Shown piece by piece: positions 15,244 to 22,209 of a DNA stretch of 64,000 nucleotides. The stretch comes from Geoalkalibacter halelectricus (GTDB taxonomy: Bacteria; Desulfobacterota; Desulfuromonadia; Desulfuromonadales; Geoalkalibacteraceae): contig NZ_CP092109.1 of NCBI RefSeq assembly GCF_025263685.1, forward strand, positions 3,411,001-3,475,000, read 5' to 3'. Numbering within the stretch: position 1 is the stretch's first letter; every line of letters begins with the position of its first letter. The notes under the pieces are model-generated. The model was not told where the DNA came from. It ran no database searches and worked only from the letters and a program-made list of their open reading frames with translations. The position numbers were made by a program, and so were the translations under genes.

Positions 15244-15339
15244 AGATTGCCGCGCCAAACACTTTCGCTCCGTAGAAAATCGTTTTAGCTCCAAGCGTAT
15301 ACACTATTTTTCCCCCGCAGTGCCAAGACCATATTTTCC

Positions 15340-15373
15340 TTGACAGTATTTCCCTGTTTGTATACTGTATACA
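15340..15373 (+). promoter_or_regulatory. icd promoter with overlapping GTATAC palindrome
   Basis: TTGACA (15340-15345) is 15 bases from TATACT (15361-15366). A perfect 15-bp palindrome TGTATACTGTATACA (15359-15373) covers the -10 box, the position expected of a repressor operator. A further GTATAC lies at 15297-15302. The resulting leader of ~225 bases before icd includes a small hairpin around 15502-15521. The acnB promoter carries nearly the same palindrome. Confidence 0.7.
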
Positions 15374-15601
15374 CGATTTGGTTTCCCGACGGCGCCTGGA
15401 TCGCGACAGTTTCGCGAGGCTCTGGCTTCGTTGGGCCAAGTCGTGCTGTTTCTGGCGAGAAGGCGGCCTGGCCCGTTGATCGCAAGGCTCGGCAATGTTG
15501 GATGGCTCCCTTGAAGGGGAGCTAAAACATTGTTGGAGGGCTTGGCTTGGGTCAGCGCTTGTTTGTCTGTGGTGGTCTGGCATAAATACTAAGGAGAGAA
15601 C

Positions 15602-17836
15602 ATGACTACGAAACCCGCGAAGATTATTTGGAGCGAAATTGATGAAGCGCCCGCCTTGGCAACCTATGCGTTGCTTCCGGTAATTCAAGGCTTCACCAAG
15701 GGGACCGGCATCGAAGTTGAGACGCGTGACATTTCTCTTTCCGGACGGATCATTGCGACCTTCCCCGACAAGCTGCGCGAGGACCAGCGCATCGCCGACC
15801 ACCTGGCTGAGTTGGGCGAGTTGGTCAAGACTCCCGAAGCCAATATCATCAAGCTTCCCAACATCAGTGCCTCCATTCCTCAGCTGCAAGCCGCCATCAA
15901 GGAGCTTCAGGCCCAGGGCTACGACGTGCCCAGCTATCCCGAGGAGCCCAAGAACGACGAGGAAAAGAAGATTCAGGAGCGCTACGCCAAGGTGCTCGGT
16001 AGCGCCGTCAATCCCGTGCTGCGCGAAGGCAATTCCGACCGCCGCCCGGCCGCCTCGGTCAAGACGTTCGCTCAGAAAAATCCGCACAGAATGATGCAGC
16101 CCTGGCCCCAGGTGTCCCAGTGCCGCGTGGCCCATATGTCGGGTGGCGATTTCTTTGAGAATGAAACCTCCACGACCCTGCAGAAGGACACCCAGGCGCG
16201 CATTGAGTTCGTCGGTGCCGACGGCAAGGTGACGGTGCTCAAGGACAAGCTGCCTCTTCTGGCCGGTGAGGTGCTCGACTCCACGCACATGGATATCGCC
16301 GCTCTGCGCAAGTTTTACGCCGAGACCATCGAGGAAGCCAAGCAAAAGGGCGTGCTGCTTTCGCTGCACCTCAAGGCGACCATGATGAAGATTTCCGACC
16401 CGATTCTCTTCGGGCACTGCGTGTCGGTCTATTACAAGGATGCACTTGATAAGCACGCCGCCACCCTCAAGGAAATCGGCGCCAACCCCAATTTCGGCAT
16501 GGCCGACATTCTGGCCAAACTCGATCGCCTGCCGGCCGCCAAGAAGGCCGAAATCGAGGCCGACATCGAAGCCTGCTACAAGACCCGACCCGCCCTGGCC
16601 ATGGTCGACTCGCGCAAGGGTATCACCAACCTGCATGTTCCCAACGACGTTATCGTCGATGCCTCCATGCCCAACGTGGTGCGCGACGGCGGCCGCATGT
16701 GGAATCTCAATGACGAACTGCAAGACACCATCGCCATGATTCCCGACCGTTGCTATGCAACCATGTACCAGGCGATGATCGAGGATTGCCAGAAGAACGG
16801 CCAGTATGACCCGGCCACCATGGGCAGCGTTTCCAACGTTGGCCTGATGGCGCAAAAAGCCGAGGAATACGGTTCTCACGACAAAACCTTCACCGCCCCC
16901 GGCGACGGCGTCATCCGCGTTGTGGACACCTCCGGAGCGACCCTGCTGGAGCAGAAGGTTGTCGCCGGTGACCTGTTCCGCGCCTGCCAGACCAAGGACA
17001 TCGCCATCAGGGACTGGGTGAAGCTGGCCGTGAACCGCGCCAAGGCTTCGGGCGATCCTGCGATTTTCTGGCTTAATGCCGAGCGCGGCCATGACGCCCA
17101 GCTGATCAAAAAGGTCGAAACCTACCTCAAGGATCATGATACCAGCGGTCTTGACATTCGGATTATGAAGCCCGTCGATGCCATGAAGTTCAGCTGCGAG
17201 CGGATCCGCAAAGGGCTTAACACCATTTCCGTGACCGGCAACGTGCTGCGCGATTATCTCACCGACCTGTTCCCCATTCTCGAATTGGGTACCAGCGCCC
17301 GCATGCTCTCCATCGTGCCCCTGTTGGCGGGTGGCGGCCTGTTCGAAACCGGTGCCGGCGGCTCCGCGCCCAAGCATGTGCAGCAGTTCCTCAAGGAAGG
17401 CCACATCCGTTGGGACTCCCTGGGTGAGTACTGCGCCCTTGTGCCTTCGCTGGAATTGGTGGCGGAGAATTACAGCAACGCCAAAGCCAAGGTGCTGGCC
17501 GAAACCCTGGATCAGGCGATCGGCAAGTATCTGGAAAACGGCAAACTGCCCTCGCGCAAGGTCAACGAAATCGACAACCGCGGCAGCACCTTCTTCCTGA
17601 CTCTTTACTGGGCGCAGGCTCTGGCCGCCCAGAGCAAGGATGCTGAGCTGAAGGCGCGCTTTGTCCCCATTGCCGAAAAACTTACGGCCAACGAAGCCAA
17701 AATCGACCAGGAGTTGCTGGCTGCCCAGGGACGTTCCGTCGATGTCGGGGGGTATTTCCGTCCCGATCCTGTGAAGGCCGACAAGGAGATGCGTCCCAGT
17801 GCGACCCTGAATGCGATCATTGATTCGATGTTCTGA
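15602..17836 (+). CDS. icd: Isocitrate dehydrogenase, NADP-dependent, monomeric type
   Basis: Oxidises isocitrate to 2-oxoglutarate and CO2 with NADP in the TCA cycle. The 744-residue length and sequence ([28 protein letters not shown] in the N-terminal part; [26 protein letters not shown] near residue 160) are those of the large monomeric class, not the ~420-residue dimeric enzyme. AAGGAGAGAA stands just before the ATG. mdh follows 96 bases downstream. Expression is probably set by the palindrome-bearing promoter upstream. The class assignment is secure; cofactor specificity is taken from the family. Confidence 0.96.
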
Positions 17837-17932
17837 TTCGTGCCGGGACGGCTGTTGATATGCTGGGGGGAGAGGGGCGGTTGATCCGTCCCGCTCCCAT
17901 GGAATCATTATCTAACAGAAGGAGAGACTCTC

Positions 17933-18889
17933 ATGGCAAGACCGAAAATTGCGTTGATCGGTGGTGGACAGATTGGTGGTGTTCTGGCCCAGCTCTGCGC
18001 GCTGCGTGAACTGGGTGACGTGGTCCTGTTCGATATCGTCGAAGGTCTGCCCCAGGGCAAGTGCCTCGATATCGCCGAGGCTTCTCCGGTGGATGGTTTT
18101 GACGTCGAACTCAGGGGCACCAACGACTACAAGGACATCGAGGGCGCCAACGTCGTCATCGTTACCGCCGGTCTGCCCCGCAAGCCGGGCATGAGCCGTG
18201 ACGACCTCATCGAGGTCAATTCAAAGATCATGCGTCAGGTTTCCGAGGGCATCAAGCAGTATGCCCCCGACTCCTTCGTCATTGTCATCTCCAATCCTCT
18301 CGACGCCATGGTGACCCTGTGCCAGCGCATCACCGGCTTCCCCTACAATCGCGTCATCGGCCAGGCGGGCGTTCTCGACTCCGCGCGTTTCGCCTCCTTC
18401 ATCGCTTGGGAACTGGGCGTGTCCGTGAAGGACGTCACCGCCATGACCCTCGGTGGGCACGGTGACGACATGGTGCCCCTGGTGCGTTATGCCAGCGTCA
18501 ACGGCATTCCCGTCATGGAGCTGCTGGAGAAAAAATACAAGGACAAGGCCAAGGCCAAGGAAGTCATGGAAGCCATGGTTAAGCGCACCCGCGGCGCCGG
18601 CGGCGAGGTCGTGGCCCTGCTCAAGACCGGGAGCGCCTTCTACAGCCCGGCCTCCTCGGCCCTGGCCATGGCCGAATCGATCCTTAAGGACCAGAAGCGC
18701 GTTCTGCCGACCTGCGCCTTCCTCGACGGCGAGTTCGGTGTCAAGGGCTACTATGTCGGCGTGCCTTGCGTCCTCGGCGCCAACGGCATCGAGCAGATCA
18801 TTGAGTTCGAACTTGATGCTGAAGAGCAGGCGATGATGGATAAGTCCGTCGCCGCCGTCAAGGGCCTTGTCGACACCCTTAAGGACTAA
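17933..18889 (+). CDS. mdh: Malate dehydrogenase
   Basis: NAD-dependent interconversion of malate and oxaloacetate; 318 residues, typical of the LDH-like bacterial MDH class. The nucleotide-binding GGGQIGG is at residues ~10-16, the substrate loop [12 protein letters not shown] near 82-93 and the catalytic His in [11 protein letters not shown] near residue 176. The ATG follows AGGAGAG. It lies between icd and the kor operon and has its own terminator, so it is probably co-transcribed with icd. Confidence 0.96.
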
Positions 18890-18917
18890 GGAATATTGAG
18901 CGTTTAATGCAGTGGAG

Positions 18918-21281: not shown

Positions 21282-21307
21282 TCACCCGCAAAAGGAGAAT
21301 TGAAACC

Positions 21308-21856
21308 ATGGCACAACGTTTTGAAATTCGGTTTTCCGGTGCCGGTGGACAGGGTCTGATCACCGCCGGCATCATTCTCGCTGAAGCTGCCAGCATCGTT
21401 GAGGGCAAGTTCGCGGTCCAGTCCCAAAGCTATGGTCCCGAGGCTCGCGGCGGCGCTTCCAAGTCGGAAGTCATCATCTCCGACGGCCCCATCGACTACC
21501 CCAAAGCGACCATTGTCGATGCTTGCCTGGCCATGACCCAGGAAGCAGCCGACAAATATGCCAACGGCATCAAGTCCGGCGGCGTGTTGCTTCTGGATGC
21601 TGACTTTGTTCCCAACGAGCCCAAAGGGGACTTCAAAATCGTACGCATGCCGATTATGCGTACCGCCAAGGAAGACATTGGTCGCGAGATTGTCGCCAAC
21701 GTCGTGGCCCTTGGCGCGATGATCGCTCTGACTGATTGTGTTTCCCGTGAAGCCGGCGAAAAAGCAGTTCTTTCCCGGGTTCCCGAAGCTTTTATCGAAT
21801 TGAATAAAAAGGCCTATAGCCTGGGTTTTGAAAAGGTTAAGGCACTGATTAACTGA
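21308..21856 (+). CDS. korC: 2-oxoglutarate:ferredoxin oxidoreductase, gamma subunit
   Basis: 182 residues. The glycine-rich FSGAGGQGLITAGIIL at the N-terminus and the QSYGPEARGGASKSEVIIS segment are the marks of the gamma subunit. The ATG at 21308 was chosen over an open upstream start at 21230 because AAAGGAG precedes it and the family begins just before the glycine loop. It is the last gene of the operon and is closed by a terminator. Confidence 0.95.
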   Translation: MAQRFEIRFSGAGGQGLITAGIILAEAASIVEGKFAVQSQSYGPEARGGASKSEVIISDGPIDYPKATIVDACLAMTQEAADKYANGIKSGGVLLLDADFVPNEPKGDFKIVRMPIMRTAKEDIGREIVANVVALGAMIALTDCVSREAGEKAVLSRVPEAFIELNKKAYSLGFEKVKALIN

Positions 21857-21884
21857 ACAGGATTTTCTGCTTGACGTTTCTTTT

Positions 21885-21920
21885 GGGCCCGAGGGGGATT
21901 CTCCCTTCGGGCCTCTTTTT
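21885..21920 (+). terminator. Rho-independent terminator after korC
   Basis: A long G+C-rich stem (21886-21896 with 21903-21913, one G-U pair) is followed by TCTTTTT. Confidence 0.85.
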
Positions 21921-22175
21921 GTCCTGAGTCCGGCAAGAATTGCGAAAAACCCGCCACGGCAAAGCAGACCAGCATGACTGTTTCAAACATAAGAATGGCT
22001 CCCCCTGCATGAGTTGTCTCCCTTCCATGTATATTTGATGAGAAGCAAGACAGAATGTGTCACGAAAATCTTGGGAACTCTCAGTACAGGGTAGTATGAG
22101 TTTTTTCAGGTAAACCGGCATGGAGTTGGGGTCTTGGAGCATAGAAATTCTTAGCAATGAAAAGGGTTTGAGTCG

Positions 22176-22209
22176 TTGACAAAACCCCGTTAAATCGTAT
22201 ACAGTATGC
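22176..22209 (+). promoter_or_regulatory. acnB promoter with GTATAC palindrome
   Basis: TTGACA (22176-22181) is 16 bases from TATACA (22198-22203), a strong sigma-70 pattern. GTATACAGTATGC (22197-22209) over the -10 is the icd-type palindrome with one arm altered by one base. It predicts a ~145-base leader. The rest of the 21921-22354 interval shows nothing else recognisable. Confidence 0.7.

What the first reader, a model, noticed from the sequence alone, without database searches (positions are those of the whole stretch)
15297..22209. Shared GTATAC-N-GTATAC operator on TCA-cycle promoters
A perfect palindrome TGTATACTGTATACA overlaps the -10 of the icd promoter, and GTATACAGTATGC overlaps the -10 of the acnB promoter; korD has a GTATAC half-site and icd a second one 62 bases upstream. 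Position over the -10 implies repression. Acetate-oxidising relatives are known to repress TCA genes through HgtR when hydrogen is the donor; whether this motif belongs to that or another regulator cannot be told from sequence.
Basis: partly seen in the sequence, partly recalled or inferred. Interest (0 to 1): 0.7.

Follow-up and report, generated by a model that had tools for sequence, protein, structure and literature searches.

The report
GntR-type operator on TCA-cycle genes
A short DNA palindrome in front of the aconitase and isocitrate dehydrogenase genes is very probably the binding site of one conserved GntR-type regulator that also marks other acetate-burning, respiration and ATP-making genes in these bacteria, and at two of those genes the site seems to have moved to the other side of the promoter in a sister group.

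Summary
GTATACTGTATAC (15360) and GTATACAGTATGC (22197) overlap the -10 of icd and acnB and are the window's only matches within 2 mismatches. The genome has 11 sites within 1 mismatch; models expect 0.2-0.3. They precede gltA, acnB, icd, fumA, nuoA, two atp genes, sfrB, glyQ, deaD and a GntR/FCD regulator gene.

The motif follows that regulator: 102 of 102 order genomes with a strong orthologue have 6-17 sites; of 26 with none detected, 20 have 0-2 and 6 have 4-10. acnB promoters carry it in 14 of 14 chosen genomes with the regulator, 0 of 11 without. By gene order the regulator is the orthologue of GSU3370, reported to bind the gltA promoter, not HgtR.

At icd, acnB, fumA and the regulator gene it overlaps the core promoter: probably repression. 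At nuoA and gltA it lies upstream of -35 in 23 of 23 and 6 of 6 own-order loci, but downstream of the -10 in 6 of 6 and 3 of 4 Geobacterales loci (fourth ambiguous): possibly a change of sign. Binding, sign and ligand are untested.

The parts
15359..15373 (.). icd operator TGTATACTGTATACA (perfect palindrome, core 15360-15372)
   Evidence: 10 of 11 own-order icd loci show a perfect site 20-21 bp after the start of TTGACA (the 11th, L025, ends before icd and its printed row is not the site). These loci had been fetched by the motif
15340..15345 (+). icd -35 box TTGACA
15361..15368 (+). icd -10 region inside the operator: TATACT 15361-15366 (spacer 15) or TACTGT 15363-15368 (spacer 17)
   Evidence: no mapped transcription start
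15602..17836 (+). icd, monomeric NADP-dependent isocitrate dehydrogenase
   Evidence: TIGR00178, 1228.6 bits
17933..18889 (+). mdh, malate dehydrogenase, downstream of icd; has a site of its own in G004 and G005 but not here
   Evidence: TIGR01763
19000..19005 (.). GTATAC half-site upstream of korD, at -50 to -45 of a TGGCTT-N17-TAGCAT promoter-like pair
   Evidence: half-site in 5 of 5 own-family clusters; position computed for 4, the fifth (G003) reads TAGGAT and failed the search pattern
19102..19302 (+). korD, ferredoxin subunit of 2-oxoglutarate:acceptor oxidoreductase
   Evidence: 4Fe-4S Pfam hits; gene name from its place in the kor operon
19326..20459 (+). korA, 2-oxoacid:acceptor oxidoreductase alpha subunit
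   Evidence: NF006412
20460..21281 (+). korB
   Evidence: ORF, name by position; no family search
21310..21856 (+). korC
   Evidence: inside ORF 21230-21856, name by position; no family search
22176..22181 (+). acnB -35 box TTGACA
22197..22209 (.). acnB operator GTATACAGTATGC, overlapping the -10 TATACA (22198-22203, spacer 16)
   Evidence: site within 1 mismatch in 14 of 14 chosen genomes with the regulator and 0 of 11 without
22355..24889 (+). acnB, aconitate hydratase B / 2-methylisocitrate dehydratase
   Evidence: TIGR00117 and NF006690
15297..15302 (.). second GTATAC half-site upstream of icd; not conserved, probably no part of the system
   Evidence: present only in own and G001 among the five own-family clusters read

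Best explanation
TGTATACWGTATACA is the operator of a GntR-family (FCD-domain) regulator whose own gene carries the site; here it is encoded at genome position 528501-529235 (L017 14002-14736) and is very probably the orthologue of G. sulfurreducens GSU3370. A dimer, or two, binds the palindrome. Over the core promoter (icd, acnB, mdh in some relatives, fumA, the regulator's own gene) or downstream of it (glyQ, atpZ) it would block RNA polymerase; a small ligand of the FCD domain would release it. One regulator would thus set the capacity for complete acetate oxidation (citrate synthase, aconitase, isocitrate dehydrogenase, fumarase, more weakly succinate dehydrogenase) together with complex I, ATP synthase and the SfrAB-like oxidoreductase. 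Shown by sequence: the sites, their targets, their conservation, and their joint presence and loss with the regulator. Inferred: direct binding, repression, the ligand (a guess: citrate, isocitrate or a near relative), and the sign at gltA and nuoA.
For: Genome-wide excess and coherent targets. In the own family, 65 sites in 6 genomes against 1 control match. Co-occurrence: 102 of 102 genomes with a strong orthologue have 6-17 sites (median 11; control median 1, up to 7; in all 1132 sites against 146 control matches); 20 of 26 without have 0-2. Orthologous promoters fetched by protein: acnB 14 of 14 versus 0 of 11; nuoA (NuoB of at least 80% identity) 14 of 14 versus 0 of 3. Operator before the regulator gene in 79 of 80 named loci, 67 perfect and 12 with one mismatch; the 80th has 2 bases upstream. 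The recognition stretch GISRTPIREAFRQLE is invariant in 31 aligned orthologues. GntR + FCD domains and fold. A paper passage states that GSU3370, GntR family, binds the gltA promoter.
Against: No binding or expression data for this organism. Of 34 genomes with no strong orthologue, 12 still have 4-10 sites; most are incomplete or fragmented drafts, but G101 is listed as 100% complete. Losses of motif and regulator cluster in a few lineages (f11, f17, f19/g50, G072), so they are few independent events, and f17 may have lost acetate oxidation (a guess). GSU3370 orthology rests on gene order, not on its sequence. A second GntR+FCD gene lies close by. gltA and nuoA sites in this order are not at repressor positions, so a pure repressor model does not fit all targets.
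Confidence: 0.84

Rival explanations
1. The motif is the operator of HgtR, the hydrogen-dependent growth repressor, one possibility the first reader named.
For: HgtR is said to down-regulate gltA, atpG (glossed there as the F0 beta' subunit) and nuoA (passage), and gltA, the F0 b' gene and nuoA all have this motif here.
Against: HgtR is GSU3364 with a predicted RpoN promoter and an EBP gene upstream; GSU3370 is a different, GntR gene. In Geobacter OR-1 and AOG1 the order regulator, (selA in AOG1), ispD, ispF, glnS, chemotaxis-like genes, cysS, small ORF, EBP fits GSU3370 down to GSU3363 (the numbers between are recalled), making the 59-61 aa ribbon-helix-helix-like ORF the likely HgtR. That ORF has no counterpart beside the EBP homologue in 8 of 8 own-order genomes read (a 16-aa stretch with E 0.05 beside it in G105 proved on reading to have no ribbon-helix-helix context). 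Weak matches of the ORF (44 of 136 genomes) and the EBP (90 of 136) do not follow the motif: genus g50 has the EBP and no sites; the 14 genomes of f8/g20 have sites and no EBP match (one search scored at most 13 candidates a genome, so absence there is not certain). The GSU3364 sequence itself was not seen.
Confidence: 0.06
2. Another transcription factor, not P0001, reads the motif, for example the second GntR+FCD protein encoded about 2 kb away (L017 11048-11812), or one lost in the same lineages.
For: Co-occurrence cannot separate regulators lost together; the second gene is of the same family and its distribution was not tested.
Against: It has no site better than 6 mismatches in its 200 upstream bases, whereas P0001's gene carries a perfect one in 67 of 80 named loci. 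GSU3370 is reported to bind the gltA promoter.
Confidence: 0.07
3. The sites are only a favoured promoter sequence (-10 boxes of the TATACT/TATACA type) and no regulator reads them.
For: Several sites coincide with -10 boxes.
Against: Sites at nuoA, gltA, glyQ and atpZ lie outside the predicted -10, the palindrome extends to 15 bp with a central A/T in 96%, and acnB promoters without it occur in genomes lacking the regulator.
Confidence: 0.02

Closest known systems
GSU3370, GntR-family regulator of Geobacter sulfurreducens (cited to Ueki and Lovley 2010, a paper not held and not seen)
   Same: GntR family; reported to bind the gltA promoter (passage of PMC10599522); gene order around the Geobacter orthologues fits its locus number
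   Different: The passage gives no operator, regulon or ligand; the 2010 paper may. Sequence identity to P0001 was not measured
HgtR (GSU3364)
   Same: Overlapping targets gltA, nuoA, F0 b' subunit (passage)
   Different: A different gene with a predicted RpoN promoter and an EBP upstream; no such small ORF beside the EBP homologue in 8 of 8 own-order genomes read
PmiR of Pseudomonas aeruginosa (PDB 7xp0)
   Same: Closest solved relative by sequence, E 4.5e-37 with the profile, 34% identity in the fold alignment; GntR-type
   Different: From recall PmiR senses 2-methylisocitrate and controls the 2-methylcitrate cycle; no ligand is known here, and its operator was not compared
VanR-type GntR repressor Atu1419 (PDB 6za3, 6z74)
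   Same: Same fold class; citrate bound according to the entry title
   Different: 24-25% identity; the third FCD histidine is mostly threonine or asparagine here (position 213)
FadR of E. coli (dual action recalled)
   Same: GntR member that represses some promoters and activates others by site position; the two kinds of position here resemble that
   Different: Fatty acyl-CoA ligand; a weaker fold match (1h9g, E 9.8e-06)

Membership tests
GntR family, FCD subgroup | N-terminal GntR winged helix | tested here: met
   PF00392, 70.3 bits, residues 21-82
GntR family, FCD subgroup | C-terminal FCD all-helical domain | tested here: met
   PF07729, 95.8 bits; model helical from 87 to 228, mean pLDDT 85.4; GntR-family chains fill the top of the PDB search
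GntR family, FCD subgroup | FCD metal ligands (an acidic residue and three histidines, recalled) | tested here: inconclusive
   H143, H147 and H191 invariant in 109 sequences, but position 213, where PmiR has a histidine, is T (73), N (34), A (1) or S (1)
Orthologue of GSU3370 | Same gene neighbourhood | tested here: met
   Geobacter OR-1 and AOG1: regulator, ispD, ispF, glnS, further on cysS, small ORF, EBP (ispD and selA by Pfam; the rest by eye); GSU numbers between 3370 and 3364 from recall. The own genome has another neighbourhood
Orthologue of GSU3370 | Sequence identity to GSU3370 | not tested
   No record titled G. sulfurreducens is among the 80 loci kept of 91
Orthologue of GSU3370 | Binding to the gltA promoter | not testable with these tools
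   Reported for GSU3370; here only the operator upstream of gltA is seen
HgtR | Gene beside an EBP gene, as reported for GSU3364 | tested here: not met
   Neighbours of the P0001 gene in own, OR-1 and AOG1: no sigma-54 activation domain in the 10 proteins scanned (dinB-type polymerase, EamA, YfaZ, second GntR, K+ channel, TIM barrel, IspD, SelA; one without a hit)
HgtR | RpoN (-24/-12) promoter | tested here: not met
   In 300 bases upstream of 79 named regulator genes the best TGGCAC-N5-TTGCA match has 3-6 mismatches, no better than shuffled DNA (2-6); a TTGACA/TTGACT-N16-TACAAT pair spans the operator in the 19 loci printed (17 TTGACA, 2 TTGACT)

The most novel reading that the evidence does not exclude
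The regulator changed sign at the entry to the TCA cycle and at complex I: in Geobacterales its operator lies just downstream of the gltA and nuoA promoters (repression), while in Desulfuromonadales it lies upstream of -35 at a nearly fixed, activator-like distance, with a conserved korD half-site at the same place in the own family. One regulator would then repress icd, acnB and fumA while activating gltA and nuo (and kor) in one order, and repress them all in the other.
Probability: 0.35. Interest if true: 0.75.

Novelty: new member of a known kind. Interest (0 to 1): 0.55.

Why it matters
Many of these bacteria live by burning acetate completely and passing the electrons to metals, sulfur or electrodes (general knowledge), and in the papers read here the control of their TCA cycle is ascribed mainly to HgtR in one species. 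A conserved operator-regulator pair covering citrate synthase, aconitase, isocitrate dehydrogenase, fumarase, complex I, ATP synthase and SfrAB in two orders gives a named candidate for that control, and the promoter positions make the repressor-or-activator question testable.

Tried and rejected
Weak sites with 2 mismatches were not counted as regulon members except sdhC, because the control exceeds the count. The deaD site (own genome only in the family loci read) and the glyQ, ferritin-like, alpha/beta-hydrolase and gap sites are reported without a functional claim. The second icd half-site was dropped as not conserved. HgtR was examined and set aside. Structure prediction confirmed the family only; it gives no ligand. 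Literature: 10 searches. Six spellings of the motif were found in two papers whose titles are unrelated and which were not opened. Passages of PMC13194489 and PMC3543383 gave nothing on GSU3370. The 2010 HgtR paper and the 2012 GSU0514 paper are not held; two GntR papers tried by DOI from memory are not held.

Searches used 30 of the 136 genomes, picked by me (14 with, 14 without, G100 and G101 uncertain). In one search G120 (AcnB fragment without start), G072, G101 and G111 (no AcnB at the cut-off) gave no acnB row; G100 has the site and was kept apart. Nine NuoB rows of 52-62% identity in genomes without the regulator show no site but were not counted as orthologues; of two such rows elsewhere, one (G040) has a site 710 bases upstream. 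L025 and L291 rows are not the operator (contig end; wrong site picked, correct one). atpX rows failed to orient and its promoter assignment is inconsistent, so no position is claimed; sfrB assignments are low-scoring and range from -23 to +5. For gltA of L194 the best-scoring promoter pair would put the site at -83; the pair at +14, equivalent to that of L195, ranks second.
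Full report
What was checked. The genome (G000, 4,125,859 bases, one contig; the window is 3411001-3475000) has 3 perfect sites and 8 with one mismatch, against 1 match for the reversed pattern. A dinucleotide model expects 0.22 and an order-3 model 0.32 such matches. At 2 mismatches the count falls below the control (24 versus 51), so only the tight motif is informative.

What the sites mark. By blast against own-genome proteins and by family searches, the 11 sites precede glyQ, a GntR regulator gene, icd, the F0 b' subunit gene (atpX), gltA (divergent dusB), nuoA (divergent moeA), atpZ, fumA (divergent thiolase), sfrB, deaD and acnB. 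dusB, moeA, thiolase and deaD are named by eye; sfrB matches NAD(P)-binding, glutamate-synthase-like models and its name is recalled. sdhC (PF01127) has a 2-mismatch site 296 bases upstream; G001-G003 have a one-mismatch site there. In the family there are 65 sites in 6 genomes against 1 control match; of the 61 surroundings fetched, 52 have one of the listed genes by blast (L025 only through the gene upstream of icd) and 3 more have sdhC. In Geobacter argillaceus (10 of 11 sites fetched again), Geobacter OR-1 (12 of 13) and Geothermobacter HR-1 (14 of 14), icd, acnB, nuoA, gltA, atpX and sfrB-like genes recur; fumA recurs in both Geobacter but gave no hit among the Geothermobacter sites.

Who reads them. 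The perfect site at 528482 starts 19 bases before the start codon of a 244-aa GntR/FCD protein (P0001). In 80 named loci (best 80 of 91), 67 have a perfect and 12 a one-mismatch site before this gene; the 80th starts at a contig end. In 136 genomes of the order, 102 have a strong orthologue (E below 1e-40) and all 102 have 6-17 sites; of 8 with only weaker matches 6 have 4-9; of 26 with none 20 have 0-2 and 6 have 4-10. The reversed pattern gives a median of 1 and up to 7. The Fisher value (1e-16) ignores kinship. Most exceptions are fragmented or incomplete genomes; G063 has an orthologue cut off by a contig end, with its site; G101 is called complete and remains unexplained. Orthologous promoters give the sharper test, on 30 genomes that I picked: acnB 14 of 14 with the regulator and 0 of 11 without; nuoA (NuoB of at least 80% identity) 14 of 14 versus 0 of 3; G100 (both) and G101 (nuoA) have the sites though their regulator is uncertain. 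Genus g50 (G129-G131) keeps AcnB of 77-82% and NuoB of 85-86% identity but has lost regulator and sites; all three of its acnB promoters keep one GTATAC half-site.

Relation to known regulators. PMC10599522 (passages and outline read) says GSU3370 is a GntR regulator that binds the gltA promoter and that little is known of its mechanism, citing Ueki and Lovley 2010 (not held). HgtR is GSU3364 (passages), with a predicted RpoN promoter and an EBP gene upstream (passage). In Geobacter OR-1 and AOG1 the regulator is followed by (selA in AOG1) ispD, ispF, glnS and, after chemotaxis-like genes, cysS, a 59-61 aa ribbon-helix-helix-like ORF and an EBP with a ferredoxin/[Fe]-hydrogenase-like N-terminus (most names by eye). 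This fits GSU3370 down to GSU3363 (numbers between recalled), so the two regulators are different genes. The small ORF has only a sub-threshold Pfam match (DUF6290); that it is HgtR is inference. In 8 of 8 own-order genomes read the EBP homologue has no such ORF beside it, and neither EBP nor small ORF follows the motif (with the scoring limit told above).

Position. Promoters are consensus predictions; no start is mapped. Distances run from the start of the -35 box to the start of the site. icd: 20-21 bp in 10 own-order loci and 20 bp in G. argillaceus, OR-1 and Geothermobacter. acnB: 20-22 bp in the 20 loci whose operator was picked (15 TTGACA, 5 with one change) and 21-23 bp in 3 more. Regulator gene: 12 bp in 19 of 19, with -10 TACAAT at the end of the site. 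fumA: in the spacer in 5 own-family loci, +3 and +12 in two Geobacter. glyQ: +14 to +19 in 8 loci; atpZ: +22 and +23 in two of three. These fit blocking. nuoA and gltA differ: in this order the site centre is at -52 to -54 (23 of 23 loci) and -50 to -53 (6 of 6), upstream of a TTGAC box; in Geobacterales at +10 to +15 (6 of 6) and +12 to +14 (3 of 4 by best score; in L194 that pair ranks second). NCBI taxonomy puts Geobacter, Geomonas and Citrifermentans in Geobacterales and Geoalkalibacter and Geothermobacter in Desulfuromonadales; the Geothermobacter contig has the length of one in own-order genome G094. The own-family korD half-site (5 of 5) falls at -50 to -45 in the 4 where a promoter pair was matched.

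Operator and protein. Over 248 distinct 25-mers chosen for up to 1 mismatch, the centre is A/T in 96% and the flanking T/A (position 7) 76%, features not imposed by the choice, though the sequences are related: TGTATACWGTATACA. The recognition stretch is invariant in 31 aligned orthologues. The nearest solved structure by sequence is PmiR; that PmiR senses 2-methylisocitrate is recalled, and it prompts, but does not show, a citrate- or isocitrate-like ligand.

Judgement. The shared operator and its GntR reader are well supported by sequence; repression at icd/acnB is likely by position; the sign at gltA and nuoA, the ligand and the physiological signal are open. How much is new cannot be fully judged because the 2010 paper could not be read.

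Noticed in passing
L104 and G002:C129: A contig titled Geoalkalibacter sp. CSMAG_1185 has the same length (8848) as the contig of a same-genus genome, so the window's host is probably Geoalkalibacter or close.
   Followed up: partly
L355, 1457-3754 (G000 about 1665956): A 765-aa enhancer-binding-protein-like ORF with a ferredoxin/[Fe]-hydrogenase-like N-terminus; the N-terminal query has a match in 90 of 136 genomes of the order at E 1e-30 or better, at most 13 candidates scored per genome.
   Followed up: partly
L201 (reverse complement 10543-10722) and L203 (reverse complement 15383-15568): 59-61 aa ribbon-helix-helix-like ORF between cysS and the EBP gene in two Geobacter; candidate HgtR.
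   Followed up: partly
L043, L051, L063: A GTATACAATATAC site in G001-G003; in L051 and L063 it lies 224 bases before a rubrerythrin/ferritin-like gene.
   Followed up: no
L304 and L320: Sites before a glyceraldehyde-3-phosphate dehydrogenase-like gene in Geobacter OR-1 and before a pyruvate:ferredoxin oxidoreductase-like gene in Geothermobacter, named by eye.
   Followed up: no
L006, L234 and other own-order nuoA promoters: A third, partial half-site follows the operator at 7-bp spacing (GCATAC A GTATAC T GTAT) before a T-tract and the TTGACA box.
   Followed up: partly
L017 11048-11812: A second GntR+FCD gene about 2 kb from the regulator, without a site in its 200 upstream bases; its spread was not tested.
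   Followed up: partly
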